Source: Ruminiclostridium sp. (GTDB lineage: Bacteria > Bacillota > Clostridia > Oscillospirales > Ruminococcaceae). Taken from it: a stretch of 37,695 bases of DNA. A program made the position numbers and the translations under genes. The notes beneath the pieces were generated by a model. It had not been told where the DNA came from, did no database searches, and was given only the letters and a program-made list of their open reading frames with translations. The stretch covers positions 1 through 37,695 of the forward strand of contig JAFTVY010000072.1 in assembly GCA_017465545.1 (NCBI GenBank). The letters run 5' to 3'. Below, one piece after another: positions 1 to 33,940 of the stretch (position 1 is the first letter of the stretch; every line of letters starts with the position of its first letter).

Positions 1-428
1 CAACTCCTGCACCCGATACAACAACTCCCGTGCCTGAGACAACCCCTGCACCCGATACAACAACTCCCGTGCCTGAGACAACTCCTGCACCCGATACAAC
101 AACTCCCGTGCCTGAGACAACTCCTGCACCCGAGACTACAACTCCCGTGCCTGAGACAACTCCTGCATCCGACACAACTCCCGTGCCTGAGACAACTCCT
201 GCGCCCGAGACTACACCCAGTCAGACTCTGACAGGTGGAGATAGTGCAGGCAATAACAACGCAGGCGGCAACAACACCGGCGGCGATAACGCAAACAACG
301 GAAACAACACAGACAGTGATGACATTCACAACCCGAATACGGGTAGCAGACTTGCAGGCTCTGCGGCTATTATCGCACTCTTATCCGTAGGTGTTATCTG
401 CCTTACTTTAAAGCGTAAGGAAAACTGA
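1..428 (+). CDS. C-terminal part of a Pro/Thr-repeat, sortase-type anchored surface protein (partial)
   Basis: The reading frame is open from the left edge, so the gene begins outside the window; the GTG at 30 lies inside the repeats and is not a credible start. What is seen: about five copies of a 12-13 residue Pro/Thr/Glu unit of the type PETTPAPDTTTPV, then a Gly/Asn-rich stretch, then NPNTG (330-344), a hydrophobic segment of about 20 residues and a short basic tail ending KRKEN. NPxTG followed by a hydrophobic helix and positive tail is the layout of sortase-processed cell-wall proteins; the Pro/Thr region would span the wall. The function of the missing N-terminal part cannot be told. 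A strong terminator follows at 465-495. Confidence 0.75.
   Translation, partial: TPAPDTTTPVPETTPAPDTTTPVPETTPAPDTTTPVPETTPAPETTTPVPETTPASDTTPVPETTPAPETTPSQTLTGGDSAGNNNAGGNNTGGDNANNGNNTDSDDIHNPNTGSRLAGSAAIIALLSVGVICLTLKRKEN
3..215 (+). repeat. In-frame tandem repeat of about 39 bp encoding a Pro/Thr spacer
   Basis: The unit encodes PETTPAPDTTTPV and recurs with small length changes (one unit lacks one Thr codon). Near-identity of the copies at DNA level suggests recent expansion, so copy number may vary between strains. It runs off the left edge of the window. Confidence 0.8.
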
Positions 429-464
429 TAAACCGCATATCGGATAACAACTAAAAACAGCTTT

Positions 465-495
465 GCTCCACAGCTTTATGCTGTGGAGCGTTTTT
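465..495 (+). terminator. Intrinsic terminator of the surface-protein gene
   Basis: A perfect 10-bp stem (GCTCCACAGC at 465-474 and GCTGTGGAGC at 480-489) with a 5-nt loop is followed by GTTTTT. It lies 36 bp after the stop codon and ends 10 bp before the next promoter. Confidence 0.93.
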
Positions 496-505
496 ATCTC
501 ATAAA

Positions 506-534
506 TTGACAAAATGTCTTAAATGTTGTATAAT
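506..534 (+). promoter_or_regulatory. Sigma-A type promoter of the AAA+ protease gene
   Basis: TTGACA at 506-511, exactly 17 bp, then TATAAT at 529-534: a full consensus match. The transcript would start near 541. The TTG of the -35 box can be mistaken for a start codon of the following reading frame, but it lies upstream of the transcription start. Confidence 0.9.
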
Positions 535-565: not shown

Positions 566-3500
566 ATGGCAGAAATCAAAAAGAGTAGCTTCTATAATTA
601 CATTATGGAAGGTGCGAACCTTATAAAGGAAAGAACCCTTTGCAAATCAATCCAGATTGAACACATATTTATTGCTATATCCGACTATCTCAACTACGGA
701 TATAACAGCTCTATAGAAGGCTTTGATTCGTCAGAATTTGAAAGTGAAAGCAGCGAATGCAGAAAGCTTCTTGATCAGTTCGGACTCAATACCAAGAATC
801 TTTCTCCCCGTATAACAAAGCTCCTTGAAGAAAATAAGCCTACGATTTCCCAGGGCTATATAGCTCAGAAAATCATATATTCAGCCAACGATACAGCCAC
901 AAAATCAGGTCTTGACTCTGTAACTGTTGATATACTGCTGAAGAAGATAATCGAATCTCCGACTCAGCTGATGAAGGATGCGGGCTTTCTTTCCAAGAAG
1001 GAAGAATCCGAGTCTGATGACGTTGTTGCTCTTTTAAAATCGTTACAGAAGCGTAGCGAAGAGAGAAAGAAGGAGCAGGAAGCCGAAAAGAAGGGCGAAA
1101 GAGATGAAGCTCCTGCGCAGGTATCGGAAGAGGCTCCCAAAAGCCGTGAGCCTGAGCATGGCAAGGACAGAATAAAGAATCTCACAAAGGAAGCAAGAGA
1201 GATAAGAGAAAAGCTCCGTTCAATGATTTTCGGACAGGACAACGCTATAAACGTTTTTGCAAACGGATACTTCCAGTCAGAAATGAGATCCTTTGTTCAG
1301 AAGCAGACCGGTAAGCCTGCCGCAACCTTCCTTTTCGTAGGCCCTCCGGGTGTAGGTAAGACCTTCTTATCCGAGCAGGTGGCTGATATCCTCGACAGAC
1401 CTTACCGCAGATTCAATATGAGCGAATATTCAGACAAGGAATCTGCACTCTCCTTTGCAGGCTCTGACAAGGTGTATAAGAACGGTAGTAAGGGTAACGT
1501 AACGGAATTCGTTGAAAAGAATCCCAGGTGCTTACTTTTATTTGACGAGATAGAAAAGGCGCATATCAACGTAATTCATCTGTTCTTACAGATTCTTGAT
1601 GCAGGTGTATTACGTGATACCTATATGGAAAAGAACGTATCCTTCGCTGACGCTATAATCATTTTCACCACCAACGCAGGTAAGAATCTTTATAACAACT
1701 CCGAAGAAAACAACGCACTTATTCCCCGCAAGACGATTTTACGTGCTCTTGAAACTGATATCAACCGTGAAACCGGTGCGCCCTACTTCCCTGCCGCTAT
1801 CTGCTCAAGATTTGCTTCAGGCAACGTGGTTATGTTCAATCAGATCGAAGCTCACGATCTTTTAAGAATCGCAAAGAAGGAAATCGTATGCTACAGCGAA
1901 GCCTTCGGAAGTATGTTTGATATAAAATCTGAGATAGACGAAAAGGTATATACCTCTATACTTTTTGCACTTGGTGGCAAGGCAGACGCAAGAACGGTAA
2001 AGAGCCGTGCTCACACCTTCTATTCCGATGAGCTTTACGAGCTGTTCAGACTGGTTGACGCTGAAGAAATCTCTATCGACAACATAAACAAGATAAGATT
2101 TGAAGTACAGCTCCCGACGGATAACGAAAAGCTTTCGGCACTCTTCAAGAACAGATACACTCCTGAAATACTGGTATTTGCCGATAAGGATGTAGCTCTT
2201 TCTATTCCCCAGTCGGATAATTACGTCATCCGCTATGCAGACACGATAGAAAAGGCAGACGAAATACTGATGAAGAACGACGTAAGCCTTATCTTCTGCG
2301 ATATTGCATATGATACAAGAGATATAAAAAGCGGCTACCTCAACATAGAGGATATAGATTCTCTCGGAAGAGACTTCTTCAGACATATCATCAGCGCACC
2401 TGTGAGCGCACCCGTATACATACTTGAAAATGATGAAATAAAGCTCAACAACGAAGAGAAGTTCTCCTTTATCAAGAACGGCGCAAGAGATACCATCAGA
2501 ATCGACGATTCTATGGCTGACTATATTACCGACATCTGTAACAAGCTCTACCAGCAGAAGAGCCTTATTGACCTTGCAAAGGCTAATAAGATAATCGCCT
2601 TTGAGACAGCCCAGAGAGTGAGTGAAGATGGCACAGAAGCGATAATAACTCTCTTTGACTTCAAGATGAACACCTCCGTTGACGCTGAAGACAGCTTTGG
2701 TATGCTTTCAGATAACTCAAAGCCTAACGTACGTTTTGACGATATAATAGGCGCAAAGGACGCAGTAGAAGAGCTTAAATACTTTGTCGACTATCTTAAG
2801 GAGCCTAAGAAGTTCTTCAAGAAGGGTGCTGAAGCTCCCAAGGGTATACTGCTTCATGGCGAACCCGGTACAGGTAAGACTATGCTTGCAAAGGCACTTG
2901 CCTGCGAAGCGGACGCTACCTTCATTGCAGTAGAAGGCAACCAGTTCTTAAAGAAATACGTCGGCGAAGGCCCTCAGCTTGTACACGATATTTTCGCAAA
3001 TGCAAGAAAATACGCTCCTTCTATCATCTTTATCGATGAAATCGACTCTATCGGATTAGAAAGAAGCGGATCTGATCATTCACAGATAGTCGCTGACGTA
3101 CTTACCGCCTTTTTAGCTGAAATGGACGGCTTCAAGAACAATATGGCAAAGCCTGTATTCGTGCTTGCGGCAACAAACTTTGAGGTTGAACCCGGTAAGG
3201 CAAAGAGCCTCGATCCTGCTCTTATGAGAAGATTCGACAGAAGAATATACGTTGATCTTCCAAGCAAGGAGGAAAGAATCAAGTTCATCCATGCCGCTAT
3301 GAAAAAGAACAGCTTTATCAATATCTCAGAGGAGAAAATTGAAAATATCGCTATCCGTTCTACCGGTATGAGCCTTGCACAGCTTGACTCCATAATCGAT
3401 CTTGCAATCAGAAACACGATAAAGAGCCGCAAGGACGAAATGACCGACGAGATATTTGACGAGGCGTTTGAAACCTTCAACAACGGCGAGATCAAGGAAT

Positions 3501-4036
3501 GGGATCCCGCAATTCTTGAAAGAACCGCCCGTCACGAAGCAGGTCACGTTCTTATAAGCCTTGAGGCAGGCGAAAAGCCTTCCTACGTGACAATTGCCGC
3601 AAGAAGCGACCACGGCGGATATATGCAGCACGGCGACAGCGAAAAGAAGGCGCTCTACACAAGAAAAGAGCTTTTCGACAGAATCAGGACTTCCCTTGGC
3701 GGCAGAGCGGCAGAAATCGTATATTACGGTGAAGAGGACGGAATTTCAACCGGTGCCTCAGGCGACCTTGTCAACGCTACCTCTGTGGCAAAGAGAATAA
3801 TCACCACCTATGGTATGGACGAGCAGTTCGGTCTTGCTTCCTATAGTGGCGAATTAAACGGCAACGATGAAAAGCTCCGTGACAGAATAAATGAAATTCT
3901 CGGCAAGGAACTGAGAAACGCTATAGCTGTCATCAGCGAAAAAAAGAAGATTATAGACGCTCTCACAGCCGAGCTTATGGAGAAGAATCACCTTTCTGCT
4001 GAGGAGATCTACAGCATCTATACCAACAATTTATAA
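566..4036 (+). CDS. Hybrid Clp/FtsH-type AAA+ zinc metalloprotease (soluble)
   Basis: The ATG at 566 (MAEIKKSS) is preceded by AAGGAG at 553-558, giving 1156 residues. Domains in order: a helical N-terminal region resembling Clp_N (about 1-150); a charged linker; a ClpA/ClpB second-ring type AAA+ module with Walker A GPPGVGKT (259-266) and Walker B LLLFDEIEKAH (323-333); a middle region of about 530-680 that looks like a receiver-type alpha/beta fold (LVFADKD, LIFCDI, PVYILEND, FIKNGA); an FtsH-type AAA+ module with GEPGTGKT (765-772), IIFIDEID (820-827) and RRFDRR (888-893); and an M41 peptidase domain with HEAGH (990-994) and the candidate third zinc ligand in GASGD (1067). No membrane segment is visible, unlike ordinary FtsH. 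It probably unfolds and degrades proteins in the cytoplasm; substrates are unknown. The individual domains are secure; the function of the hybrid is inferred. Confidence 0.88.
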   Translation: MAEIKKSSFYNYIMEGANLIKERTLCKSIQIEHIFIAISDYLNYGYNSSIEGFDSSEFESESSECRKLLDQFGLNTKNLSPRITKLLEENKPTISQGYIAQKIIYSANDTATKSGLDSVTVDILLKKIIESPTQLMKDAGFLSKKEESESDDVVALLKSLQKRSEERKKEQEAEKKGERDEAPAQVSEEAPKSREPEHGKDRIKNLTKEAREIREKLRSMIFGQDNAINVFANGYFQSEMRSFVQKQTGKPAATFLFVGPPGVGKTFLSEQVADILDRPYRRFNMSEYSDKESALSFAGSDKVYKNGSKGNVTEFVEKNPRCLLLFDEIEKAHINVIHLFLQILDAGVLRDTYMEKNVSFADAIIIFTTNAGKNLYNNSEENNALIPRKTILRALETDINRETGAPYFPAAICSRFASGNVVMFNQIEAHDLLRIAKKEIVCYSEAFGSMFDIKSEIDEKVYTSILFALGGKADARTVKSRAHTFYSDELYELFRLVDAEEISIDNINKIRFEVQLPTDNEKLSALFKNRYTPEILVFADKDVALSIPQSDNYVIRYADTIEKADEILMKNDVSLIFCDIAYDTRDIKSGYLNIEDIDSLGRDFFRHIISAPVSAPVYILENDEIKLNNEEKFSFIKNGARDTIRIDDSMADYITDICNKLYQQKSLIDLAKANKIIAFETAQRVSEDGTEAIITLFDFKMNTSVDAEDSFGMLSDNSKPNVRFDDIIGAKDAVEELKYFVDYLKEPKKFFKKGAEAPKGILLHGEPGTGKTMLAKALACEADATFIAVEGNQFLKKYVGEGPQLVHDIFANARKYAPSIIFIDEIDSIGLERSGSDHSQIVADVLTAFLAEMDGFKNNMAKPVFVLAATNFEVEPGKAKSLDPALMRRFDRRIYVDLPSKEERIKFIHAAMKKNSFINISEEKIENIAIRSTGMSLAQLDSIIDLAIRNTIKSRKDEMTDEIFDEAFETFNNGEIKEWDPAILERTARHEAGHVLISLEAGEKPSYVTIAARSDHGGYMQHGDSEKKALYTRKELFDRIRTSLGGRAAEIVYYGEEDGISTGASGDLVNATSVAKRIITTYGMDEQFGLASYSGELNGNDEKLRDRINEILGKELRNAIAVISEKKKIIDALTAELMEKNHLSAEEIYSIYTNNL

Positions 4037-4053: not shown

Positions 4054-4082
4054 TTGACTTATACAGACGATTGTTGTATAAT
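4054..4082 (+). promoter_or_regulatory. Sigma-A type promoter of the YbjN-like gene
   Basis: TTGACT at 4054-4059, 17 bp, then TATAAT at 4077-4082. It sits just behind the protease stop codon, so the small downstream gene can be expressed independently of the protease. Confidence 0.85.
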
Positions 4083-4129: not shown

Positions 4130-4612
4130 ATGTCAGAAGAAATCAAACTCGCACGCGCCCAGGCTACATACCGCACACTTTGTGAAGCACTTGATGAAAT
4201 GGAGCTTCGCTACGATGCCAACGACGAAAAGCTCACAGTTACACTTTCAGTTAAGGGCGACGACTTCCCCGTAGAATTAAGATTCAGAGTAAGTCCCGAA
4301 AGACAGCTCGTTTCACTTTTCTCACAGCTCCCCTTCACTATCTCCGAATCAAAGATTGTTGATCTCGCACTTGCAGTAAGCACAGCCAACTACGTACTTG
4401 CAAACGGTTGCTTCGACTTCAAGATCACTTCCGGTGATATTCTGTTCAGAATGGTTAACTGCTTCGAAAACACAGACCTCAGCAAGGATATATTCAAGTA
4501 TATGACTATCTGCACAGTTTCTACAGTAGATGAATACAACGATAAGTTCCTTCTCATTTCAAAGGACGTATTACCTCTTGACAAGTTCATTTCAGACGTA
4601 TTCGACAACTGA
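4130..4612 (+). CDS. YbjN-like / type III secretion chaperone-fold small protein
   Basis: The ATG at 4130 (MSEEIKLARAQ) has AAAGGA at 4115-4120; an apparent TTG start at 4112 overlaps this ribosome site and is rejected. The product is 160 residues, acidic, with no signal peptide or membrane segment. The pattern of a helix, a curled sheet (KLTVTLSV, FPVELRFRV, RQLVSLFSQLPF), a helix, a second strand pair (FDFKI, DILFRM) and C-terminal helices resembles the YbjN family, whose fold is shared with type III secretion chaperones. Family members are thought to be chaperones or regulators, mostly uncharacterised. It sits directly behind the hybrid protease and may be an adaptor or substrate-binding partner; that is inference only. 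Confidence 0.6.
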   Translation: MSEEIKLARAQATYRTLCEALDEMELRYDANDEKLTVTLSVKGDDFPVELRFRVSPERQLVSLFSQLPFTISESKIVDLALAVSTANYVLANGCFDFKITSGDILFRMVNCFENTDLSKDIFKYMTICTVSTVDEYNDKFLLISKDVLPLDKFISDVFDN

Positions 4613-4635
4613 TAAGCGATTAACTGAATAAGCTG

Positions 4636-4667
4636 ACAGCCGTGGATAAAATCCACGGCTGTTTTTT
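4636..4667 (+). terminator. Intrinsic terminator of the YbjN-like gene
   Basis: A perfect 12-bp stem (ACAGCCGTGGAT at 4636-4647, ATCCACGGCTGT at 4651-4662) with an AAA loop is followed by six T. The 3' arm and T tract are repeated imperfectly at 4688-4703. Confidence 0.93.
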
Positions 4668-5912: not shown

Positions 5913-6989
5913 TTATTCAAGTAATATTCTTTCGTCGCAGAATTCACACTCAAGAATATCTCCTGCCGCTCTGAAGGCGTGAGGAAGATAGGTTTCCGTT
6001 GCTGTGATACATTTCGGGTTATGACAGCACACGTCCTTATTGGTGTAGCCTGAGGTAAGAGGCTGATTTGAAAGCTTGCCCTCAAGAATGCTTATAATAA
6101 GCGCCATTCTTGCGTAAACGCCGTTTGCCGCTTGTCTGAAATATAAAGCTCTTGGATCATCATCCACGTCGATTGTGATTTCGTCGACTCTCGGCAGAGG
6201 ATGAAGCACTATCATATCAGCAGAAGCCTTTTTCATTTTATCAGTATCAAGAACGTAGATATTCTTCTGTCTTAAGTACTCCTCCTCGCTTGCAAAACGC
6301 TCCTTCTGTATTCTTGTCATATAAAGAACGTCAAGTCCTCCGATAGCCTCTTCTATAGTTGCTACCTCTTTATATTCACAGCCTCTTGCTTTAAGAATAT
6401 CCTTTATATAAGAAGGAAGTGCAAGCTCGTCTGAGCTTATCAGCACGAATTTATTATTCTTGTACTTTGACAGAGCCTTGAGCAATGAGTGTACCGTTCT
6501 GCCGTATCTCAGGTCACCGCAAAGACCTACCGTAAGGTTATCAAGTCTGCCCTTCTCACTTTTAAGAGTAACAAGGTCGGTAAGCGTCTGTGTGGGGTGG
6601 AGATGTCCGCCGTCGCCTGCATTTATAACAGGACAGTCAGCAGTCAGAGCCGCCGCCTTTACGCTACCCTCAAGAGGATGACGGATAACCATTATATCCG
6701 AATAGGAGCTTACTACCTTGGTGGTATCCTTTAAATTCTCGCCCTTTGCAACGGAGGAGGTAGAAGGGTTATCAAAGCCGATTATAGAGCCGCCAAGACG
6801 GAGCATAGCCGTCTGAAAGCTCATCTGTGTTCTTGTTGATGGTTCAAAGAACAGCGTAGCCATTATTCTACCCTTGCAACGCTCGGAGTATGCGGAGGGG
6901 TTGTTCTTTATTTCTGTACCAAGCTCAACTATTCTGTCAAGCTCGGGAACAGAGTAATCGTCAAGGTCTATAAGGTGACTGAAGCTCAT
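5913..6989 (-). CDS. pyrB: Aspartate carbamoyltransferase with a C-terminal PyrI-type zinc module
   Basis: Catalyses carbamoyl phosphate plus aspartate to carbamoyl aspartate, the committed step of pyrimidine synthesis. 358 residues against about 305-310 for ordinary PyrB. Seen: FEPSTRTQMSF (carbamoyl-phosphate loop), DNPSTSSVAKGE loop, HPTQTLTD, GDLRYGRTVHS, HPLPRVDEI (aspartate site). The last 49 residues add C322-x4-C327-x20-C348-x2-C351 (starting CHNPKCI and ending CEFC), the same spacing class as the zinc site of the separate E. coli regulatory chain PyrI, but with no effector-binding domain. The ATG at 6989 overlaps the stop of the preceding sugar transferase (ATGA), so the two are translationally coupled. 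No other pyr gene is near. Confidence 0.93.
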   Translation of the reverse strand: MSFSHLIDLDDYSVPELDRIVELGTEIKNNPSAYSERCKGRIMATLFFEPSTRTQMSFQTAMLRLGGSIIGFDNPSTSSVAKGENLKDTTKVVSSYSDIMVIRHPLEGSVKAAALTADCPVINAGDGGHLHPTQTLTDLVTLKSEKGRLDNLTVGLCGDLRYGRTVHSLLKALSKYKNNKFVLISSDELALPSYIKDILKARGCEYKEVATIEEAIGGLDVLYMTRIQKERFASEEEYLRQKNIYVLDTDKMKKASADMIVLHPLPRVDEITIDVDDDPRALYFRQAANGVYARMALIISILEGKLSNQPLTSGYTNKDVCCHNPKCITATETYLPHAFRAAGDILECEFCDERILLE

Positions 6990-20088: not shown

Positions 20089-21630
20089 TTACGTTTCTGA
20101 ATTTCGTGAAATGCTCAGAAGTATGCCTGCCTCTGCAAGCTGAATGGTAAGTGCCGTTCTGCCGTAGCTGAAGAAGGGTAACGAAATACCCGTATTAGGC
20201 AGCGCATTGCAGGCTACTCCGATATTGAAGAACGCCTGAAGTACAAGCTGTACCGTTATACCTAACGCCAGTAATGAGCCGAAGGTATCCGTTGCGCCCT
20301 TTGAGATTTTATAGCCTCTGTATCCGAAGAATACGAAAAGCAGTATTACCGTGATACCGCCAACGAGTCCCAGCTCCTCGCATACGATTGAGAATACGAA
20401 GTCGTTCTGTGCCTCAGGGAGGTAGTAGTATTTCATTATCGAGTTACCGAGACCTCTGCCGAATAAACCGCCTGAGCCTATCGTTATCAGTGACTGGCTG
20501 GTCTGATAGGTGGTATCTGTGGTATCCCCGAAGGGAGCAAACCAACCGTCTATACGTTCAACGATATATGATATCTTATCAGGGAAAAGTATCACGAAGG
20601 CGATAGCCGCCACTACAATTAAAACTGTAAGTCCGAACAGCTTTCTCAGGCTTACGTCGCCTGCAAACATCATTGCATAGCAGATAACCGTAACGATGAT
20701 AACCGCCGAAAAATGTCTCTGTGCTACACAGGTAATTGCACACAGTGCAAAAACGAATACGTATCTTGCAAAGCCCGGCGCATACTTTTTTCTGGACTCG
20801 TAATATCTCTGGAGCATATACGCCATAACCAGTATAAGGGATATCTTCATAAGCTCGGAGGGCTGGAAGCGGACTCCGAAAAGGGTTATCCAGCGTCTTG
20901 CACCCGCTACCTCTTCACCTGCAACACAGGTGAGGATCATAAGGAACATAGCGAAAATAAAGAAGAGGATATGTGCCGCATTAAGTCCGTTTCCCTTGAC
21001 CTTGAATTCGTCGAGGGGCTTCTTTTTCAGTCCCACGCAGTCCTTGAGAAATCTGCCGAAATGTCTGAACACCTGAATAACAGGTGTAATAAATATTTTA
21101 TAATCCATAAAGGCAAAGAACAGCATAGCGCCGAAGCCTATCAGCATACCGTAAATCTGCTGTTTTATAGAATCGTAGCTGTCACGGTTTTCAAAAAGTG
21201 ACTGGGCGTAGCTTGCCGAGGACATAATTACAAGACCGAACACGGCAAGAATAATTATAGTGAGCAGAAGTGGTATATCCACCTTGCCTCTTCTTTTGAA
21301 ATAGGTACAGCAGGTAGGCGGTGCGTCAGGTGCTTTTAATACCCTGACAATGCTCGTTGCCTTTTCTGAGGCTTTTTCAATGAATTCATCCGCAGAGGCA
21401 CTTCCTGAACTGTGGGGTGCCGCTTTTGGCACCGGCTTTTTTTCTGTGGCAGGTCTTGTACCTGCATCATAACGTATAATATGATCGTATTTTTCTTTTA
21501 CGGGGGCGCTGCTTTTTACTTCCCTTTGCTGTCCTTCGCCGGCTTCAGGCTTATTTACAGTCATTGAAGGAGCTTTACTCTTTTTCTTTACTAAAACGTC
21601 GTTCAGTCTGCCGTTGTCCGCCATTGCCAT
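20089..21630 (-). CDS. ftsW: Septal peptidoglycan polymerase FtsW (SEDS family) with a long cytoplasmic N-terminus
   Basis: ATG at 21630 with AAGGAAAGGGG upstream; a second ATG (MADNGR) lies two codons on. 513 residues, about 110 longer than usual because of a hydrophilic, Lys/Pro/Ala-rich N-terminal segment before the first membrane helix (about 116). SEDS motifs: GARRWITLFGVRFQPSELMK, the outer loop LPEAQNDFVFSIVCEE carrying the conserved Asp, and ALPNTGISLPFFSYGR near the C-terminus. A hydrophilic insert (LKKKPLDEFKVKGNG) lies between early helices. It polymerises lipid II together with the class B PBP encoded upstream. SpoVE is the alternative name for sporulation paralogues. Confidence 0.94.
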   Translation of the reverse strand: MAMADNGRLNDVLVKKKSKAPSMTVNKPEAGEGQQREVKSSAPVKEKYDHIIRYDAGTRPATEKKPVPKAAPHSSGSASADEFIEKASEKATSIVRVLKAPDAPPTCCTYFKRRGKVDIPLLLTIIILAVFGLVIMSSASYAQSLFENRDSYDSIKQQIYGMLIGFGAMLFFAFMDYKIFITPVIQVFRHFGRFLKDCVGLKKKPLDEFKVKGNGLNAAHILFFIFAMFLMILTCVAGEEVAGARRWITLFGVRFQPSELMKISLILVMAYMLQRYYESRKKYAPGFARYVFVFALCAITCVAQRHFSAVIIVTVICYAMMFAGDVSLRKLFGLTVLIVVAAIAFVILFPDKISYIVERIDGWFAPFGDTTDTTYQTSQSLITIGSGGLFGRGLGNSIMKYYYLPEAQNDFVFSIVCEELGLVGGITVILLFVFFGYRGYKISKGATDTFGSLLALGITVQLVLQAFFNIGVACNALPNTGISLPFFSYGRTALTIQLAEAGILLSISRNSET

Positions 21631-21664
21631 TCCCCTTTCCTTGAAATTATATTAAATAAGTATC

Positions 21665-22684
21665 TTAAAGTATTCCGAAATAAAGTAACACTATACCCAC
21701 ACCGCAGGCTAAAAGCTCCAGCGCTGAGAATACGGCAACTATCTTCACTTCCTTCCAGCCTCTTATTTCAAAGCTATGATGGATAGGAGTCATTTTGAAG
21801 AGTCTCTTGCCGTGGGTAAGCTTGAAGTAGGTCATCTGGATAAGCACCGATAAGGCTTCCCAGATATATATTGCACTACAGATAACCATTATGAATTCCG
21901 TACCCGTGCCGATACCAAGAGCGGTAACGATACCGCCTAAAAACATTGAACCGGTATCACCCATCATAACCTTTGCAGGGTGGAAATTCCATACCAAGAA
22001 GCCGAGGCATCCTGCACCTGCTACTGCGGCTACTAAAGACATTTCGCCGAAATCCACAAGAGAGCAGATAACAAGGTACGCCGCACAGTAAACTACCGTT
22101 ACCGATGAACACAGACCGTCAACACCGTCCGTGAGATTTACCGCATTTACAAGATAAAGGATACCAAGTCCCATTATCAGATAGTAGAAGTACCATAAAT
22201 CAAGCTGTCCTAAGAAGGGGAAGCTGATTACGGTAGAGGTATCGCCTGCGATGATGCGGGAGGTAAAGTATGCGGCTATTACAAGCACCTGCATAATTAT
22301 CTTCTGCATAGGGGTGAGTCCCTCGTTGCGCTTTTTCTTTACCTTGATAAAATCATCCACAAAGCCGATAAATCCGAAGCATACCGCCATAACGATTGCG
22401 GAGACAGCCTTGACAAACTTTACCGAACCTGTAGCCTCAAAGCTTAATGCACCGTTCAGCCACATTATGATTATACCCGTAATAAAGGCGATTATCGAGC
22501 CTGCAATAAACATTACGCCGCCCATTGTGGGTGTGCCTTCCTTGGATTTGTGCCATGCAGGGCCTATATCAAGAATAGTCTGACCGAATTTCAGTCTTTT
22601 AAGAGCAGGGATAGTTACAAATCCTAAAAGTGCGGTTATCCCGAAGCTTACTATTGCCGCAATTACTGTTGCAGGTATATTCAT
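21665..22684 (-). CDS. mraY: Phospho-N-acetylmuramoyl-pentapeptide transferase
   Basis: ATG at 22684, six bases after the murE stop, with AAAGGA inside the murE end; 339 residues, about ten membrane segments. It joins phospho-MurNAc-pentapeptide to undecaprenyl phosphate to give lipid I. Seen: HKSKEGTPTMGG, FVDDFIKVKKKRNEGL (catalytic Asp pair), NLTDGVDGL and the MTPIHHSFEIRGWKE loop. murD, which usually follows mraY in Firmicutes, is missing; ftsW comes next. Confidence 0.97.
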   Translation of the reverse strand: MNIPATVIAAIVSFGITALLGFVTIPALKRLKFGQTILDIGPAWHKSKEGTPTMGGVMFIAGSIIAFITGIIIMWLNGALSFEATGSVKFVKAVSAIVMAVCFGFIGFVDDFIKVKKKRNEGLTPMQKIIMQVLVIAAYFTSRIIAGDTSTVISFPFLGQLDLWYFYYLIMGLGILYLVNAVNLTDGVDGLCSSVTVVYCAAYLVICSLVDFGEMSLVAAVAGAGCLGFLVWNFHPAKVMMGDTGSMFLGGIVTALGIGTGTEFIMVICSAIYIWEALSVLIQMTYFKLTHGKRLFKMTPIHHSFEIRGWKEVKIVAVFSALELLACGVGIVLLYFGIL

Positions 22685-22690
22685 CGTGTA

Positions 22691-24163
22691 TTATTCCTTT
22701 CGACTTAATATTTCCTCTACTATTTCCCTTTCGCAAAAGGGCTGATATTCCTTACCGATTATCTGGTATCTTTCGTGTCCCTTGCCGGCAAGCACGATAA
22801 CGTCGTCTTTTTTTGCCATAGCAAGTGCCTTTTCTATAGCAAGCCTTCTGTCAGGCTCCTTTATACAAGGGAGCGTTTTATCTGCACCCTCCCAGACCTC
22901 TTCTATTATTGCGACGGGATCCTCGCTTGCAGGGTTATCAGAGCTTATCACAAGCACGTCGGCGTATTCCGATACCGCCTTTGCCATCATAGGACGCTTT
23001 TCTCTGTCCCTTTCCCCTGCACCACCGAACAGACAGATAAGTCTGCCCTTTACCATCGGCTTTATTGCTGACAGCATCTTACGGAGTGCGTCATCGGTGT
23101 GAGCGTAATCGGTTATTACCGTAAACTCGCCTTCATAGACTGTATTCAGTCTGCCGTCAACACCCTGACAGCTACAAAGCGCCTTTGCACATTCCGTCAC
23201 GTCATAACCGCAGGCTGATACCAGCGCTATGGCACAAAGGGCGTTCTGTACGTTATAAAGCCCCGTCATATTTATCTTTACTCTGCAGGTTTTTTCCGCC
23301 CTGCTATCTGTCAGCATAAATTCGCTGCTTGTAGCGGTCATCTTTATATAATCAGCATATATATCCGCCTGCTCCTTTACGCTGTAGGTTATCGCCGTAT
23401 CCTTATGACGCTCTGCGAGGATTCTGCCGTAATCGTCATCTATGCATATTACCGCATTGTCCGTAAGAGTGAAGAGCCTTGCCTTGGCGTCAAAATAGTT
23501 ATCCATTGTGATATGATAGTCAAGATGGTCTCTCGTAAGGTTTGTAAAGCCTGCCGACAGAAATTTTTCATCGGCTATTCTGTGCTGGCACAAAGCCATG
23601 GAGCTTGCCTCCATAACACAGTATTCCGCACCGTTTTTAACCATCTCGGAAAACCATTTATAAAGCGTTGCGCTACCGGGTGTTGTGGGTGTACCGTGAG
23701 GAGACTCGGTAAGTCTTCCGTCGCACAGATCGTTACCTGCCGTACCGATACATCCGCATTTCTTACCGAGTGTGGTAAGGATATGCTTTACAAGATGTGC
23801 TGTTGTGGTTTTTCCGTTGGTACCCGTCACCGCAATAAGTCCGAGCTTTTTCGTGGGACTGCCGCTGAAGGCGGAACAGATTTCAGCAAGTGCAAGCCTT
23901 GTATTTTCAACTATTATCTGATTTTCCGCTCCCGTATCCCTCTCGCAGATTACAGCCGCCGCTCCTTTTTCCATCATCTGCTGTGCCACAGTATGACCGT
24001 CAAAGCGTGCGCCCTTTATGCATACGAAAAGGCTACCCTCCGTAACGTTTGCGGTATTGTCTGTAACGGACGTTATTTCGCAGTTTTCTACACCCTGCTC
24101 CTTTGCGGGTCTGCATATATCATAAAGCTTTATAACACTCACCTCATCAGCCTGTTTCATCAT
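22691..24163 (-). CDS. murE: UDP-MurNAc-tripeptide synthetase with an atypical DNPA specificity motif
   Basis: The ATG at 24163 overlaps the PBP gene by 17 bp; no good ribosome site precedes it, and starts a few codons inside (GTG at residue 7) remain possible. 490 residues. It adds the third stem-peptide residue to UDP-MurNAc-L-Ala-D-Glu. Seen: ATP loop GTNGKTTT (114-121), HGTPTTPG, MEASSMAL, TNLTRDHLDYH, the carbamylated-Lys segment FDAKARLF, DGRLN and DYAHTDDAL. At 409-412 (22928-22939) it has DNPA; diaminopimelate enzymes carry DNPR, while DNPA occurs in the lysine-adding enzyme of Staphylococcus. The third residue of this wall is therefore uncertain. Confidence 0.94.
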   Translation of the reverse strand: MMKQADEVSVIKLYDICRPAKEQGVENCEITSVTDNTANVTEGSLFVCIKGARFDGHTVAQQMMEKGAAAVICERDTGAENQIIVENTRLALAEICSAFSGSPTKKLGLIAVTGTNGKTTTAHLVKHILTTLGKKCGCIGTAGNDLCDGRLTESPHGTPTTPGSATLYKWFSEMVKNGAEYCVMEASSMALCQHRIADEKFLSAGFTNLTRDHLDYHITMDNYFDAKARLFTLTDNAVICIDDDYGRILAERHKDTAITYSVKEQADIYADYIKMTATSSEFMLTDSRAEKTCRVKINMTGLYNVQNALCAIALVSACGYDVTECAKALCSCQGVDGRLNTVYEGEFTVITDYAHTDDALRKMLSAIKPMVKGRLICLFGGAGERDREKRPMMAKAVSEYADVLVISSDNPASEDPVAIIEEVWEGADKTLPCIKEPDRRLAIEKALAMAKKDDVIVLAGKGHERYQIIGKEYQPFCEREIVEEILSRKE

Positions 24164-26453
24164 TTACAAGGAAGTCGACCTTTATAACCTCGCCTCTGTA
24201 CTGTATCGTACCCGGAGAAGGACTCTGATATATAGCTTTAGCCTCATTACTTCCGAAGGCGCCCTGAAGCTTGATATTGAAGCCCGCTTCGGTTATCGCC
24301 TTGTTCGCCTCGGCTACCGTCATTCCTCTTACGTCGGGTATCTCTCTGAGCTCATACTTCTCAAGCGTCATTTCGCCCATATAGATAACCACCTTACCAC
24401 CCTTGGGCATAAAGGTGCCTGCCTGGGGATACTGTCCGCCTACTACCGAGTTTTCGTCAACGTCTCCTACAAATTCTGCCTGAAGTCCTGCCGCAGTAAG
24501 CATAGCCTCAGCTCTGATACTGTTGTAGCCGGTTACGTAAGGAACGGAAACGTCCTGGTTTTTAAGCTCTTCCTCGGTGTATTGGGGGAAGATATTGAGG
24601 TATTCAAGTCCCTCCTTGAATACTGCCGATACGACGGGTGCCGCAATAGCACTACCGTAGATATATCCCGAAGTAGGCTCATCAGCCACTACAAGCATTA
24701 CGTATTCGGGATCGTTTGCGGGTACTACCGCACAGAAGGTTGCCACGTAACGAAGCTCCTCGTGCTTACCGCTGTTGAAATCGTCGATCTTTTCTGACGT
24801 ACCACTCTTACCACCGATACGGTATCCGCTGATATAGGCGTTACTACCGCCGTTGTAGTTTACTACGTCCTCTAATATTTTTCTCATTGTAGCGGAGGTC
24901 TCTTCACTTATAACCTGACGTCTTACAACAGTCTCGGTTGCTTCTACCACGTTGCCGTTGCCGTCTACAATCTTGTCTACTATATAGGGAGTCAGCAGTT
25001 TACCGCCGTTTACTGCGGCACAGACTGCCGTTGCCATCTGTATGGGAGTTACCTTATTGGTCTGTCCGAATGCCGAGCTGGAAAGCTCAACTATACCCAT
25101 ATTTGAAAGGGGTACGTAAAGTGAATCCGCCTCACCGGGAAGGTCGATTCCCGTTTTTTCGGTAAAGCCGAAGGCCTCGAAATACTTTGTGAATTTATCC
25201 TGACCTAAAAGCTGTCCTATCTGAATAAATGCAGGGTTGCAGGAATGAATCATCGCTTCTGTAAGATTTGACGTGCCGTGTCCTGCTGAGCTCCAGCACT
25301 TGATATGAGTTCCCGCTACCTCTGCAACGCCCGTACAAAGGAAGGAGCTGTCAAGGCTTACCTTCTCCTCTTCAAGAGCCGCCGCACAGGTGAAGATCTT
25401 GAATACAGAGCCGGGGATATAAAGCTCGCCTACCGCCTTGTTCTGCCATTGTCTGCCCCAAAGCTCCTGACGTGCCTTATCTATTTCTTCTTCAGTCTTT
25501 TTATCGTCGGACATCTGTGCCAGCGCATATCTGTCCTTCTCAAAGAATATATAGGTGGGATCGTTGGGGTTGAAGCCGGGATAGGTTGCCATCGCAAGGA
25601 TCGCTCCCGTCTTGGCATTCATGATAATGCCTGTGCTTCTGTTTTCTATCTTGTGCTGTGAAACGGTCGTTTCGAGATTTTTTTCAAGATAATACTGCAG
25701 GGTTTCGTCTATTGTAAGTACAAGGTTATTACCCTGCTTTGCTTCGTAAAGCATCTCATAACCGTAGGGCATATCGTCGCCCTGCTGGTCCTTTGTAGTA
25801 ACAAGCTTTCCGTTTACGCCGGTAAGGTATTTATCATAATAGGATTCTATACCGTATGCACCGCCGTTGGCGTTTACAAAGCCGAGAACGTTTGCCGCAA
25901 GAGTACCGTTGGGGTAATAACGGATGCTGTTTTCTCTCGCATAGCACATAACGTGGCTAAGACGGTTATCGCTCATGAATTTTTCTATTTTTGAAACAGT
26001 CTCTCTGTCTACCTGCTTTTTGGCAACGAAGTCCCACTGATTTGCATAATTATCGCAGGCTTCTACAAGAGTCTGCATATCGATTCCGAGAATATCGGCT
26101 ATATTTCTGCAGATGAAATCTCTTTCGGTTCTGTAGTTTTCCTCGTCTCTTTCCTCGTCCTTGCCCTCTTCGTCGAAGTTGATTCGTCTTATTTCACCTG
26201 CGCAGAGTATTATATCCCAGGCAGGGGTATTCTGGGCTAACACCTTGCCGTTTCTGTCATAGATATTGCCTCTGTCGGCTAAGATGGTTATCTCTCTTTG
26301 CTGCTGATTCTCTGCTTCTGTAAGCATAGAATCGTGCTGGATAACAGACCAGTAAAAAAGAAAGCCTGCTACGTATATTGACATAACCACCAAAAGGAAA
26401 AATCCTATAGCGGCTATCTTTCTTTTCATTTCCTCTGTAAGTTTTCCGTGCAT
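24147..26453 (-). CDS. Class B penicillin-binding protein with two PASTA domains (FtsI/SpoVD type)
   Basis: ATG at 26453 with AAGGAGAT upstream; 768 residues. A membrane anchor (about 12-35), the PBP dimerisation domain (ADRGNIYDRNG onward, with an acidic insert EEGKDEERDEE near 96-106), a transpeptidase domain with SVFK (349-352), SCN (404-406) and KSG (549-551), and two C-terminal PASTA domains (about 635-697 and 702-765). It cross-links septal peptidoglycan as the partner of FtsW. The same architecture serves vegetative division (PBP2b/PbpB) and spore cortex (SpoVD); as the only PBP in the cluster it is probably the division enzyme. Confidence 0.93.
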   Translation of the reverse strand: MHGKLTEEMKRKIAAIGFFLLVVMSIYVAGFLFYWSVIQHDSMLTEAENQQQREITILADRGNIYDRNGKVLAQNTPAWDIILCAGEIRRINFDEEGKDEERDEENYRTERDFICRNIADILGIDMQTLVEACDNYANQWDFVAKKQVDRETVSKIEKFMSDNRLSHVMCYARENSIRYYPNGTLAANVLGFVNANGGAYGIESYYDKYLTGVNGKLVTTKDQQGDDMPYGYEMLYEAKQGNNLVLTIDETLQYYLEKNLETTVSQHKIENRSTGIIMNAKTGAILAMATYPGFNPNDPTYIFFEKDRYALAQMSDDKKTEEEIDKARQELWGRQWQNKAVGELYIPGSVFKIFTCAAALEEEKVSLDSSFLCTGVAEVAGTHIKCWSSAGHGTSNLTEAMIHSCNPAFIQIGQLLGQDKFTKYFEAFGFTEKTGIDLPGEADSLYVPLSNMGIVELSSSAFGQTNKVTPIQMATAVCAAVNGGKLLTPYIVDKIVDGNGNVVEATETVVRRQVISEETSATMRKILEDVVNYNGGSNAYISGYRIGGKSGTSEKIDDFNSGKHEELRYVATFCAVVPANDPEYVMLVVADEPTSGYIYGSAIAAPVVSAVFKEGLEYLNIFPQYTEEELKNQDVSVPYVTGYNSIRAEAMLTAAGLQAEFVGDVDENSVVGGQYPQAGTFMPKGGKVVIYMGEMTLEKYELREIPDVRGMTVAEANKAITEAGFNIKLQGAFGSNEAKAIYQSPSPGTIQYRGEVIKVDFLVNDETG

Positions 26454-26580
26454 TGTATCTCCTTAAAAGCGTTTTAAAAATACTTCAATAAAAAGCTTTA
26501 TCCTTTTTCAAAAACAGCATGGCTGAATTCAAAAAAGGAGCTTTTTCCACCGCTTTTTGCGGCTTGTTAATTTATATTCA

Positions 26581-27075
26581 TCAGATTCCCAGATATTCCA
26601 CTATTCCGCTTATCCAGTTGCCGATACCGAACAGGAAACCATCGTTGCTATCCTCTGCGTTTTCGGTCATAGCACCCGTATCCATTTCGATATACTGTTC
26701 CTGAGCGTGTACTACCTTCTGCATACCAAGCTCGTCCACAGCGTACTGTTCAACCTGCTCAAGGGATACCGAGCCGTTAAGCTCTGCCATAATAGCCGTA
26801 TTGGTTGCCTTAGTCTCGTCAAGAATATCCTGCTTCTGGCTGACACGGAGATTTACCTCGCTGAGCGCCGCCTTGCAAAGGATGAACGCCATCAGTAATA
26901 TGGTAAACATCGCCGCCACTATTATAATAGCCACCGGATTGCCTCTCTTTGACGCTGAGACGGAAACGACCTCAAGCTCGGGCGCCTTTTCGGTTTCTTC
27001 CTTGGGCTTACGTAACGTTGTATCAAACAGCGCAAAATCATATGCTGTACTTGTTCTGTTATATGCGTCCTTCAT
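26581..27075 (-). CDS. ftsL: FtsL-like division protein
   Basis: ATG at 27075 with AAAGGAG upstream; 164 residues. A hydrophilic N-terminus of 45 residues, one membrane helix (about 47-69), a heptad coiled coil (LSEVNLRVSQKQDILDETKA), then the motif LEQVEQYAVDELGMQK typical of FtsL/DivIC. It forms the coiled-coil bridge between DivIB and the FtsW-PBP pair. It has a longer C-terminal tail (about 35 residues, ending in a hydrophobic segment) than most FtsL. The position between rsmH and the PBP is the classical ftsL position. The 127 bp before the PBP gene hold only AT-rich sequence with weak hairpins. Confidence 0.88.
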   Translation of the reverse strand: MKDAYNRTSTAYDFALFDTTLRKPKEETEKAPELEVVSVSASKRGNPVAIIIVAAMFTILLMAFILCKAALSEVNLRVSQKQDILDETKATNTAIMAELNGSVSLEQVEQYAVDELGMQKVVHAQEQYIEMDTGAMTENAEDSNDGFLFGIGNWISGIVEYLGI

Positions 27076-27127
27076 AATTTTTCTCCTTTTGATTACCTCT
27101 GTATTATCTTATCCTTTTATCTTTATT

Positions 27128-28054
27128 TCAGAGCTTTTCTATTATTCTGAGCTTTGCACTGCGACTTCTGACGTTTACAGAAAGCTCCTCGTCGCCTGCA
27201 ATTATCGGTTTTTTGTTTACAAGTGCGCCTCTTGGCGTCTTTCCGCAAACGCAAACGGGGAAAGAAGAGGGGCAGGTGCAACCCGTACAATATTCCTTGA
27301 ATTTATTCTTTACTATTCTGTCCTCTATCGAATGGAAGGTTATTACCGCAAGTCTGCCGCCCACGTTCAGCGCATCAAAGGCGCTGTCAAGACCTGTTAC
27401 CAGTTCGTCAAGCTCTCCGTTTACCTCTATGCGGATTGCCTGAAAGGTCTTCTTGCAGGGGTTCTTTTCCTTTCTGACTTTAAGCGGTACGTTTCTTTTT
27501 ATAATCTCCGCAAGCTGAAGAGTAGTTTCTATAGGGGCAAGCTCTCTTTGTTTTATTATGCCCGAAACTACCCCTCTTGCGAATTTTTCTTCGCCATACT
27601 GGAAAAGTATTTTTTCAAGCTGTGCTGCGGGATATTCGTTTACCACGTCATAAGCACTGAGTCCGCTTTTGCTCATTCTCATATCAAGAGGTGCGTCCTC
27701 GTGATAGGAAAAGCCACGTTCTGCAGTATCAAGCTGATAGGAAGAAACGCCTAAATCCATCAGCACTCCGTCAACCTTTTCCACACCAATTTCAGCAAGT
27801 GACTCGGAAAAGAAGGAGAATTGCTTATTTATTAGTATATGATTATAGGGCTTTAATACTTCTTCAGCAGCCTTTACCGCATCCGGATCTCTGTCAAAGC
27901 CGATGAGTCTGCCACCGTCAAGCCTTTTTGCAATCTCACGGGAGTGACCTGCAAAGCCTGTGGTACAATCCACGTATATTCCGTCGGGCTTTATTGCAAG
28001 TCCTTCTATAGTTTCTGAAAGCAGCACAGGTATATGAATTTGTTTTTCACTCAT
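27128..28054 (-). CDS. rsmH: 16S rRNA (cytosine-1402-N4)-methyltransferase
   Basis: ATG at 28054 with AGGAGGAAT upstream; 308 residues. It methylates N4 of C1402 in the decoding centre of 16S rRNA. Seen: HIPVLLSE, the SAM loop DCTTGFAGHS (usually DGTxGxGGHS), MDLGVSSYQLD, RGFSYHEDAPLDMRM, KTFQAIRIEVN and the C-terminal ITFHSIEDRIVK with Cys-rich CTGCTCP. Formerly mraW. Normal length; second gene of the dcw operon. Confidence 0.97.
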   Translation of the reverse strand: MSEKQIHIPVLLSETIEGLAIKPDGIYVDCTTGFAGHSREIAKRLDGGRLIGFDRDPDAVKAAEEVLKPYNHILINKQFSFFSESLAEIGVEKVDGVLMDLGVSSYQLDTAERGFSYHEDAPLDMRMSKSGLSAYDVVNEYPAAQLEKILFQYGEEKFARGVVSGIIKQRELAPIETTLQLAEIIKRNVPLKVRKEKNPCKKTFQAIRIEVNGELDELVTGLDSAFDALNVGGRLAVITFHSIEDRIVKNKFKEYCTGCTCPSSFPVCVCGKTPRGALVNKKPIIAGDEELSVNVRSRSAKLRIIEKL

Positions 28055-31800: not shown

Positions 31801-31922
31801 GTGTAAAGCAGATTCTGCATCTTCATCAGCGTCTGATCCATTACAGCACGGTCATCCTTGGCGTGCGCCTGATAAAAGTCGCCTAAAAGCCCTGATATTT
31901 CTTCGTTGCGAAATGCCTCCAC
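28821..31922 (-). CDS. Sacsin/Hsp90-like GHKL ATPase protein, large, function unknown
   Basis: The GTG at 31922 has AAGGAG at 31932-31937, inside the end of the preceding gene. 1033 residues. An N-terminal GHKL ATPase domain: N-box RELMQNTFG (79-87, Glu80 and Asn84), G1 YNEDGI (111-116), G2 GREGRFGVGSKSVF-type lid (138-148 GRFGVGSKSVF). The rest (about 250-880) is of no family I recognise. Near the C-terminus ICSCCGNE (from 888) and YMCAND (from 925) may bind zinc. No signal peptide or membrane helix. It starts one base after the stop codon of the SNF2-like gene and so is translated with it. GHKL proteins of this sort act as ATP-driven clamps, seen in chaperones, MutL, MORC and several defence proteins. 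The role here is unknown. Confidence 0.8.
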   Translation of the reverse strand: MEAFRNEEISGLLGDFYQAHAKDDRAVMDQTLMKMQNLLYTGEADSTPFKDYFNSVFSGRTPYNTSLSVSDYPKESILRELMQNTFGCYYSEPDIKVLFNFEQNGETRITYNEDGITLEQILYYLSIGRSDGDKSREGRFGVGSKSVFMNVEWMKLRSNNFNFRIVNDAGILKIRELNLTAPIFKGTEIVFKVSEEEQNKIKENLINLTIHKGEYINLVEFCFAFIRKKQLGRFGEAENRERSFNIAVMEMGKPLAVYKVIRYQKNPEDDPTVRFLQNGKSVIEFIWHENDGFVYLIPFAVSASRRDTIVKVLLDKYNYFSTYELTGLIKSTGEDFIKEKLSAFFISVPNSYITTHRTGIRHECEEEVSAAISRDLEYMIDKYSRYFVLELLPRTNSEKYYMRPKHYVFEFFSNYLNTSVMASNLQSKFHNSLSLMVPGREAIMPYSEVKEIGFFSTTDGVSKKEHEDGSAFTEYIEQELTKMKADVTDLPDNIIMASYNWSDEETEEEGSEFCYNFNFGGNTYVLDSEKNPAIKDFGISFGFRSIVSLKLGKYVVNDAVANEEALIGAFGLFDAMYGQDYKIGMRYYQFNVRYRDIQHNFDVARMTVGNLKKVYDCVVAHKNNFENHQIYNEVINMLINSFTQGKDTMTFLREMKEQGCDITLQLDINKKFRFAAYGKQFMIPGSITNADLLEIIGDVYALINCGMFNGRVFDFPFSKSGYSFEKASLMSLLRSYDLTDEKVSSVIPSLYICDLKIPRIALLGEGNKIIRIVDINDEITEEERKNITKYVILKDDCTKPEFSKYIEYLLVGENNNILSQFYSSTEEPNQVLLDQIPYYYKPLPTITRGELNYLREHYKTLRGLSNLRIYRNYFAKDINGKLFGYGGICSCCGNETSIINNYVIKGFEVGLFKDDKEEKFKFSLYMCANDSFAASGWVIEDISIGGMSPFLWLEEIEKCEAIPPEFLLCTIKYRSQLTYDIIGSETREHGDMIALESVSDGEQQTMDLILTPLMLAKWLEDNLSDEYVAGDAE

Positions 31923-31923
31923 C

Positions 31924-33912: not shown

Positions 33913-33940
33913 AAAAATCACCCTCCAGTTTTATTGCAAA

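What the first reader, a model, noticed from the sequence alone, without database searches (positions are those of the whole stretch)
566..4036. Soluble Clp/FtsH chimera: two unlike AAA+ modules, a receiver-like middle and an M41 protease in one chain
Seen directly: ClpB/ClpA-type Walker A/B (259-266, 323-333) and FtsH-type Walker A/B, arginine finger and HEAGH zinc site (765-994) in one 1156-residue frame with no membrane helix. Known families: Clp proteins recruit a separate ClpP; FtsH is membrane-bound with one AAA module. Combining a Clp_N plus ClpB-D2-type ring with an FtsH ring and its own M41 protease is unusual. The middle 530-680 has strand ends and a lysine-turn pattern like a response-regulator receiver, which would allow signal input. 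Inference: a two-tier unfolding machine with built-in proteolysis, possibly regulated.
Basis: partly seen in the sequence, partly recalled or inferred. Interest (0 to 1): 0.78.

Follow-up and report, generated by a model that had tools for sequence, protein, structure and literature searches.

The report
Soluble Clp-FtsH two-ring protease family
This gut-bacterium gene encodes an intact, apparently soluble protein-degrading machine that joins a Clp-type unfolding ring, a signal-receiver-like domain and an FtsH ring with its own protease in one chain, and it belongs to a rare, patchily spread family often found beside sensor-like genes.

Summary
Window 566-4036 is one intact 1156-codon gene with a Clp-D2-type AAA+ ring, an FtsH-type AAA+ ring and an M41 zinc protease, and no predicted membrane helix. 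It is no frameshift or assembly artefact: 29 chimera loci were read, window included. In the 24 aligned, every ATPase and zinc-site residue checked is invariant, and each half forms one clade apart from ordinary FtsH or Clp. Profile comparison supports a receiver-like middle and, in one subset, a Clp_N-like N domain. The receiver keeps the phosphoacceptor-position Asp but lacks the usual acidic pair and lysine, so ordinary phosphorelay is doubtful. The genome also encodes ordinary FtsH, ClpP and two Clp proteins. The family is patchy: 13 of 394 genomes of the order. Neighbours vary: YbjN-like gene (9 of 29 loci), TrkA_N/RyR/TIR, CARF nuclease, TPR gene, or a fused Ser/Thr kinase. Best reading: a soluble two-ring AAA+ protease gated by partners or signals, used in stress or conflict responses. 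Substrate and trigger are unknown. Eight literature searches listed no description.

The parts
566..4036 (+). Clp-FtsH chimera gene, 1156 aa (ATG at 566; an in-frame TTG at 506 gives the longer mechanical ORF)
   Evidence: AAGGAG at 553-558
566..1015 (+). N domain (residues 1-150), Clp_N-like pair of helical repeats
   Evidence: hhalign of 11 members against 20 Clp N domains that I picked: probability 91, E 1.1e-6 (85, 6.4e-6 without L109); 8 column shuffles E 0.26-0.84. PDB profile: designed repeat protein first (E 1.4e-4), ClpA N domain next (E 0.0076). Pfam Clp_N in only 2 of 10 members, best E 0.11
1313..1711 (+). Clp-D2-type AAA+ ring (AAA_2, residues 250-382; ring region about 205-510)
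   Evidence: K265, D327, E328, N370, R415, R476 identical in 24 of 24
2162..2521 (+). receiver-like middle domain (residues 533-652); phosphoacceptor-position Asp579 at 2300-2302
   Evidence: hhalign probability 96.4, E 1.4e-9 against 16 of the 27 receivers found in the genome; 8 shuffles E 0.055-0.86; PDB profile hits mostly response regulators, best about 1e-4; Pfam Response_reg in 8 of 21 members, best E 0.0036, none in the window's; D579 in 23 of 23 rows with a residue there
2846..3256 (+). FtsH-type AAA+ ring (residues 761-897)
   Evidence: K771, D824, E825, N871, R888, R889 identical in 24 of 24
3521..4018 (+). M41 metalloprotease domain (residues 986-1151); HEAGH at 3533-3547, third-ligand-position Asp1067
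   Evidence: H990, E991, H994, D1067 identical in 24 of 24; the ligand role of the Asp is recalled
506..534 (+). promoter-like site TTGACA-17-TATAAT, 12 of 12 matches, upstream of the chimera
   Evidence: 8 such sites found in the region, 7.5 expected; this is the best
4054..4082 (+). promoter-like site TTGACT-17-TATAAT, 11 of 12 matches, upstream of the YbjN-like gene
   Evidence: second best
4130..4612 (+). YbjN-like partner gene, 160 aa from the ATG at 4130
   Evidence: PF10722, E 0.003, 18.2 bits, below the cut-off of 22; recurrent neighbour
464..490 (+). terminator-like stem upstream of the unit
   Evidence: 4 such sites found, 4.2 expected
4635..4663 (+). terminator-like stem downstream of the unit
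   Evidence: 4 such sites found, 4.2 expected

Best explanation
The gene encodes a soluble, self-contained AAA+ protease. A Clp_N-like N domain, or a partner such as the YbjN-like protein beside it, presents a substrate. The Clp-D2-type ring unfolds it and threads it, past or under control of a receiver-like domain, to an FtsH-type ring whose attached M41 domain cuts it. The family is an accessory module with varying partners (YbjN-like gene, TrkA_N/RyR/TIR genes, CARF nuclease, TPR gene, fused Ser/Thr kinase), so it is probably switched on by a stress or conflict signal rather than doing housekeeping. Shown by sequence: the domains, intact catalytic residues, no predicted membrane helix, family, clade structure and neighbours. 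Inferred: hexameric stacking, gating, partner binding and physiological role.
For: Domains. Of 17 key residues checked, 16 are identical in 24 of 24 rows and D579 in 23 of 23 with a letter. Each half forms one clade of 22 chimeras, apart from 12 ordinary FtsH and apart from 16 Clp, SH-aLRT 100. Ordinary FtsH, ClpP and two Clp proteins lie elsewhere in the genome, so this one is extra. Patchy spread: 13 of 394 genomes of the order, 10 of 71 of the genus, one of these a fragment. YbjN-like gene beside the chimera in 9 of 29 loci; 10 of 13 chimera genomes of the order carry one against 13 of 381 others (Fisher p 1.3e-11). RyR, TIR, TrkA_N, CARF-PDDEXK and kinase context.
Against: No structure could be predicted, so stacking is unproven. 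The receiver lacks the acidic pair and Lys, and L075 lacks the domain. The Clp-ring pore-loop region is not GYVG (motif recalled) and varies. Partners differ from locus to locus; 7 of 29 loci (L059, L066, L067, L070, L132, L133, L134; L066 and L133 cut by contig ends) have none of them. In the order, only 6 of the 10 genomes with both genes have them side by side; G163, G168 and G224 do not and G382 cannot be told. The window's other neighbours are housekeeping or surface genes. P0001 matches no PADLOC model beyond its AAA+ modules. The distant relative L134 appears to have lost Walker B residues. The Fisher test is inflated by relatedness and because the YbjN profile was built from chimera neighbours.
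Confidence: 0.55

Rival explanations
1. A general protein-quality-control device, a fused counterpart of the ClpK/ClpG plus FtsH pair on heat-resistance islands: it clears aggregated protein under stress, with no dedicated signalling.
For: On plasmids the two enzymes lie side by side as separate genes: 13 of the 15 listed places (of 3897 records with a match) are annotated with an FtsH gene beside an AAA or Clp gene. Clp_N-like N domain. Patchy, accessory spread fits a stress-tolerance gene. YbjN-family proteins have a chaperone-like fold (start of abstracts in the listing).
Against: The conserved receiver-like domain, kinase fusions and RyR, TIR and CARF neighbours are not needed for bulk clearance. 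No plasmid record covers 80% of the query: 0 of 3897.
Confidence: 0.25
2. A defence (anti-phage or anti-plasmid) effector: nucleotide or kinase signals from neighbouring sensors trigger destruction of an essential host or phage protein.
For: TIR gene in the L061 row of genes and an RyR gene next to the chimera of L060; CARF-PDDEXK nuclease directly upstream in L057 and L063; the helicase-type neighbour of L077 matches PADLOC Mko models. Patchy spread.
Against: Not general: in 9 of 29 loci the immediate partner is a YbjN-like gene; P0001 itself matches PADLOC only in its AAA+ modules; not found full length in phages, nor among the 80 viral-contig loci kept.
Confidence: 0.15
3. The receiver-like domain is only a structural spacer between the rings and the protease is constitutively active.
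For: No acidic pair or Lys; L075 lacks it altogether.
Against: The phosphoacceptor-position Asp is invariant where the domain exists in A1, 23 of 23, although L133, one of four distant rows added later, aligns Lys there.
Confidence: 0.3

Closest known systems
FtsH (M41 AAA+ protease)
   Same: C-terminal 440 residues: AAA ring plus M41, 37-41% identical to the ordinary FtsH matches listed in the family sample (47 of 148 genomes had a match at E 1e-60, chimeras included)
   Different: No predicted membrane helix, an extra Clp ring, N domain and receiver-like middle; TIGR01241 score 323.7 against a cut-off of 600
Hsp100 ClpA/ClpB/ClpC
   Same: Clp_N-like N domain and a ClpA/B second-ring-type AAA_2 module
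   Different: Only one Clp-type ring; the second ring is FtsH-type; own protease; pore-loop region not GYVG (ClpB motif recalled)
ClpK/ClpG with FtsH on thermotolerance islands
   Same: The same two enzyme types encoded together (papers as search listing only)
   Different: Separate genes; the listed matches to them cover about half of the query
FtsH ternary conflict systems (Kaur et al. 2020, PMC7159879)
   Same: A two-AAA FtsH-type protein in a conflict setting (passages seen)
   Different: There both AAA domains are FtsH-type and the first is inactive, with MoxR and vWA; the term M41 does not occur in the main text
IetAS (anti-phage AAA ATPase plus protease)
   Same: IetA profiles are the best PADLOC hits of the FtsH ring (E 3.1e-42)
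   Different: FtsH_fam scores far higher (323.7 against 143.3 bits); here the protease is fused and M41 (that IetS is a subtilisin is recalled)

Membership tests
FtsH | AAA ring followed by M41 with HExxH and Asp | tested here: met
FtsH | N-terminal membrane anchor | tested here: not met
   maximum KD19 1.17 against 2.95 in the own FtsH
FtsH | NCBIfam TIGR01241 equivalog cut-off | tested here: not met
   323.7 of 600 bits
Hsp100 Clp | Clp_N domain | tested here: inconclusive
   hhalign probability 91 but below Pfam thresholds
Hsp100 Clp | two Clp-type AAA rings | tested here: not met
   one AAA_2 ring; the second ring matches FtsH/AAA
Hsp100 Clp | ClpP-binding IGL/IGF loop | not tested
   not seen by eye after TTNAG; motif recalled
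Response-regulator receiver | receiver fold profile | tested here: met
   hhalign E 1.4e-9 (one comparison, no database correction); shuffles 0.055 or worse; against Clp N domains 0.5
Response-regulator receiver | phosphoacceptor Asp | tested here: met
   D579 in 23 of 23; aligned with the receiver Asp
Response-regulator receiver | acidic pair and conserved Lys | tested here: not met
   columns 533-545 and 634-648; the rule itself is recalled
FtsH ternary conflict system | two FtsH-type AAA domains, the first inactive | tested here: not met
   first ring is AAA_2 and intact
FtsH ternary conflict system | MoxR and vWA genes alongside | tested here: inconclusive
   none among the neighbours given to Pfam; not every neighbour was scanned
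YbjN (partner) | PF10722 gathering score 22 | tested here: inconclusive
   window 18.2 and L056 14.4 below it, L064 35.2 above

The most novel reading that the evidence does not exclude
A previously undescribed family of soluble, two-ring AAA+ proteases gated by a degenerate receiver and by swappable sensors (YbjN-like, RyR/TIR, CARF, Ser/Thr kinase), acting as the proteolytic effector of bacterial signalling or conflict systems.
Probability: 0.35. Interest if true: 0.82.

Novelty: new variant of a known kind. Interest (0 to 1): 0.64.

Why it matters
Clp unfoldases recruit a separate protease and FtsH is membrane-bound (family knowledge, recalled). A natural chain that puts a Clp ring in front of an FtsH ring and its own protease would test whether the two AAA+ clades can work in series on one substrate, and how a receiver-like domain between them could gate proteolysis. 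The recurring sensor-like partners offer a set of candidate triggers.

Tried and rejected
Frameshift or chimeric assembly: rejected; 24 loci align over the same order of AAA_2, AAA and M41, and each half gives one clade.

Pfam as evidence for Clp_N and receiver: nothing for the window's own segments and only weak hits in relatives (Response_reg 8 of 21, best 0.0036, with OKR_DC_1_N in 5 of 21, best 0.0026; Clp_N 2 of 10, best 0.11). Replaced by profile-profile comparison with shuffles and cross-controls.

Known defence system: PADLOC matched P0001 only in its AAA+ modules. Phage and viral origin: 0 of 146 phage records cover 80% of residues 1-715, and the 15 listed cover at most 40%; the 80 viral-contig loci kept (from a capped list of 600) match only within alignment residues 1-311 of 511.

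Class and phylum scans at E 1e-50 also return Clp proteins: of 50 of 391 and 25 of 398 genomes with a hit, only 3 and 3 (G000 in both) extend past model position 480; the others stop by 313.

Literature: eight searches, seen as capped listings only, plus 12 of 18 passages of PMC7159879. No description of this architecture was seen. The library is open-access only, and the paper asked for is not held.

Rows dropped: L066 and L069 from the trees, and 3 of 15 chosen FtsH rows that gave no row with the anchor motif; L066, L069 and L075 from the core and middle profiles. The N-domain profile uses 9 of the 24 rows of A1 plus L131; L073-L075 were cut out but left out of it, and the other members have different, shorter or kinase-bearing N termini. 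I picked the 20 Clp N domains from the listing, the 16 Clp rows, and 16 of 27 receivers.
Full report
The gene. Window 566-4036 (+) is an uninterrupted 1156-residue frame with a ribosome site at 553-558. Pfam finds AAA_2 at 250-382, AAA at 761-897 and Peptidase_M41 at 986-1151. NCBIfam's best match is FtsH, 323.7 bits over 714-1148 against a cut-off of 600; residues 207-463 match positions 445-687 of ClpA, its second ring. No membrane helix is predicted: the highest 19-residue hydropathy mean is 1.17, against 2.95 for the ordinary FtsH of the same genome. Among the 24 aligned members only L070, whose start may be called too early, exceeds 2.

Not an artefact. A MAG named Ruminiclostridium sp. 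RGIG2157 carries an 80%-identical full-length copy. In the family sample of 148 genomes it is in G000 and G094, with a contig-edge piece in G037. In all, 29 chimera loci were read: the 24 rows of alignment A1, window included, plus L079, L131, L132, L133 and L134. L066, L076, L079 and L133 are cut by contig ends; L058 and L069 are near copies; L068 is the contig of L003 to judge by its length.

Catalysis. In the 24 rows of A1 the checked Walker A and B, sensor and arginine positions of both rings and the H-E-H-D set of the zinc site are invariant. Of four further distant members, L131 and L132 keep all of them; L133 is cut before M41; L134 keeps the zinc site but appears to have lost Walker B residues of both rings, although that alignment is unsure. 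The roles of these residues are recalled from the known families.

One fusion, probably. In a tree of the FtsH half, 22 chimeras form one side of a branch with SH-aLRT 100 against 12 ordinary FtsH; in a tree of the Clp ring the same 22 separate from 16 Clp proteins with support 100. The small subclades agree between the trees, but L063, L067 and L075 sit differently, and L067 and L075 have long branches. These are quick trees. Chimeras of one genus are scattered over the tree while most of that genus lacks the gene, which points to transfer or repeated loss.

The other domains. A profile of the middle region from 21 members (A3) aligns with 16 receiver domains of the same genome at probability 96.4 and E 1.4e-9. 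Eight column-shuffled controls give E 0.055-0.86, and the middle against Clp N domains gives 0.5 (these E-values are for single comparisons). In the PDB the profile's best hits are a designed protein (9.9e-5) and a response regulator (1.1e-4), followed mostly by receivers and CheY proteins. D579 falls on the phosphoacceptor Asp and is present in 23 of 23 rows of A1 that have the domain; L075 lacks the domain; the acidic pair and the Lys are not conserved. The N domain aligns with Clp N domains at probability 91 and E 1.1e-6 with an 11-member profile, or 85 and 6.4e-6 without L109; eight shuffles give 0.26-0.84 and the receivers 0.42. Its top PDB hit was a designed repeat protein (1.4e-4), with ClpA next (0.0076), and troponin C among the weak hits. 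Only a subset has this N domain: others have a kinase or a short N terminus. A conserved stretch at about 655-712 remains unassigned.

Partners. The gene after the chimera in the window (ATG 4130) is YbjN-like. YbjN-like genes also lie beside the chimera in L047, L056, L058, L064, L065, L068, L069 and L131, making 9 of 29 loci with the window. In 19 chimera genomes scanned, 12 have such a gene, and 13 of 18 places are next to the chimera. In the 394 genomes of the order, 10 of 13 chimera carriers have one against 13 of 381 others (Fisher p 1.3e-11); the two genes are side by side in 6 of the 10, apart in G163, G168 and G224, and on separate contigs in G382. Relatedness and the way the profile was built inflate this test. 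A second recurrent neighbour is a 600-780-residue protein in L060, L061 (two copies), L062 and L079: Pfam gives TrkA_N in one of the four scanned and nothing in the other three, and I read an RyR-like C-terminus by eye. A separate RyR gene lies next to the chimera in L060 (Pfam 1.6e-35) and a TIR gene in the L061 row; by BLAST clusters alone, an RyR-like gene also lies in L061 and an RyR-like and TIR-like pair about 5 kb from the chimera of L072. A CARF-PDDEXK nuclease is directly upstream in L057 and L063 (Pfam Card1 below cut-off). TPR-type genes adjoin L073 to L075 (Pfam for L073 only), with a TraG-type coupling protein near L074 (Pfam) and L075 (BLAST). An N-terminal Ser/Thr kinase domain is found by Pfam in L071, L076 and L077 and by alignment in L072. 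That leaves 7 of 29 loci with none of these: L059, L066, L067, L070, L132, L133 and L134. L067 and L132 share a small neighbour, DUF1292 by Pfam in L132.

Expression unit. The chimera and YbjN-like gene lie between two terminator-like stems (464-490, 4635-4663), and each has a promoter-like site of 12 and 11 of 12 matches. The numbers of both kinds of site in the region are at chance (8 against 7.5, 4 against 4.2), so only the quality and placing of these speak for them.

How it probably works. From the anatomy I infer a soluble hexamer in which the Clp-type ring unfolds a substrate chosen by the N domain or a partner and hands it to the FtsH ring and its M41 chamber, with the receiver-like domain between the rings as gate or spacer. 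The genome also encodes an ordinary FtsH, ClpP and two proteins with Clp_N in frames of 876 and 814 codons, so this machine is extra. The variety of sensor-like partners favours a signal-triggered role in stress or conflict; which, I cannot decide.

Novelty. No NCBIfam model reaches its cut-off among the 25 of 52 shown, PADLOC matches only the AAA+ modules of P0001, and the literature searches (capped listings) showed nothing with this architecture. Kaur et al. 2020 describe a different double-AAA FtsH protein (passages). Separate Clp-type and FtsH genes sit together on plasmids. I rate it a new variant of a known kind: an AAA+ protease with a combination that I have not seen described.

Noticed in passing
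window 1-428: End of a Pro/Thr-repeat surface-type protein finishing in NPNTGS, a hydrophobic stretch and basic tail, like a sortase signal (by eye; no Pfam hit).
   Followed up: no
window 5913-6989: Aspartate carbamoyltransferase with a PyrI_C metal-binding domain at its C-terminus, a PyrB-PyrI fusion.
   Followed up: no
window 20089-28054: Cell-wall and division genes (FtsW/RodA type, Mur ligase, PASTA penicillin-binding protein, MraW) close together on the minus strand.
   Followed up: no
window 28821-33921: Two large adjacent minus-strand frames (1033 and 665 aa) without a Pfam match at 1e-5.
   Followed up: no
P0001 residues about 655-712: Conserved stretch (NK...FETAQ...DG..A.I.LFDF) between the receiver-like domain and the FtsH ring with no assigned fold.
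   Followed up: no
L242 7049-10970: A second YbjN-like pair in G416 lies near an 830-aa protein that begins like a vWA domain by eye; no relative of the chimera was found in the 15 kb by BLAST.
   Followed up: partly
L134 7573-10458: Distant relative with HEAGH kept but Walker B residues of both rings apparently lost.
   Followed up: partly
L071 5195-7432, L072 5350-7542: A gene convergent with the kinase-fused chimera in two genomes; Pfam shows kinase plus leucine-rich repeats for the L071 copy.
   Followed up: no
L078 324-5750 (G559): A chimera fragment in a genome stretch that also holds RyR-like and TIR-like genes by BLAST cluster.
   Followed up: no
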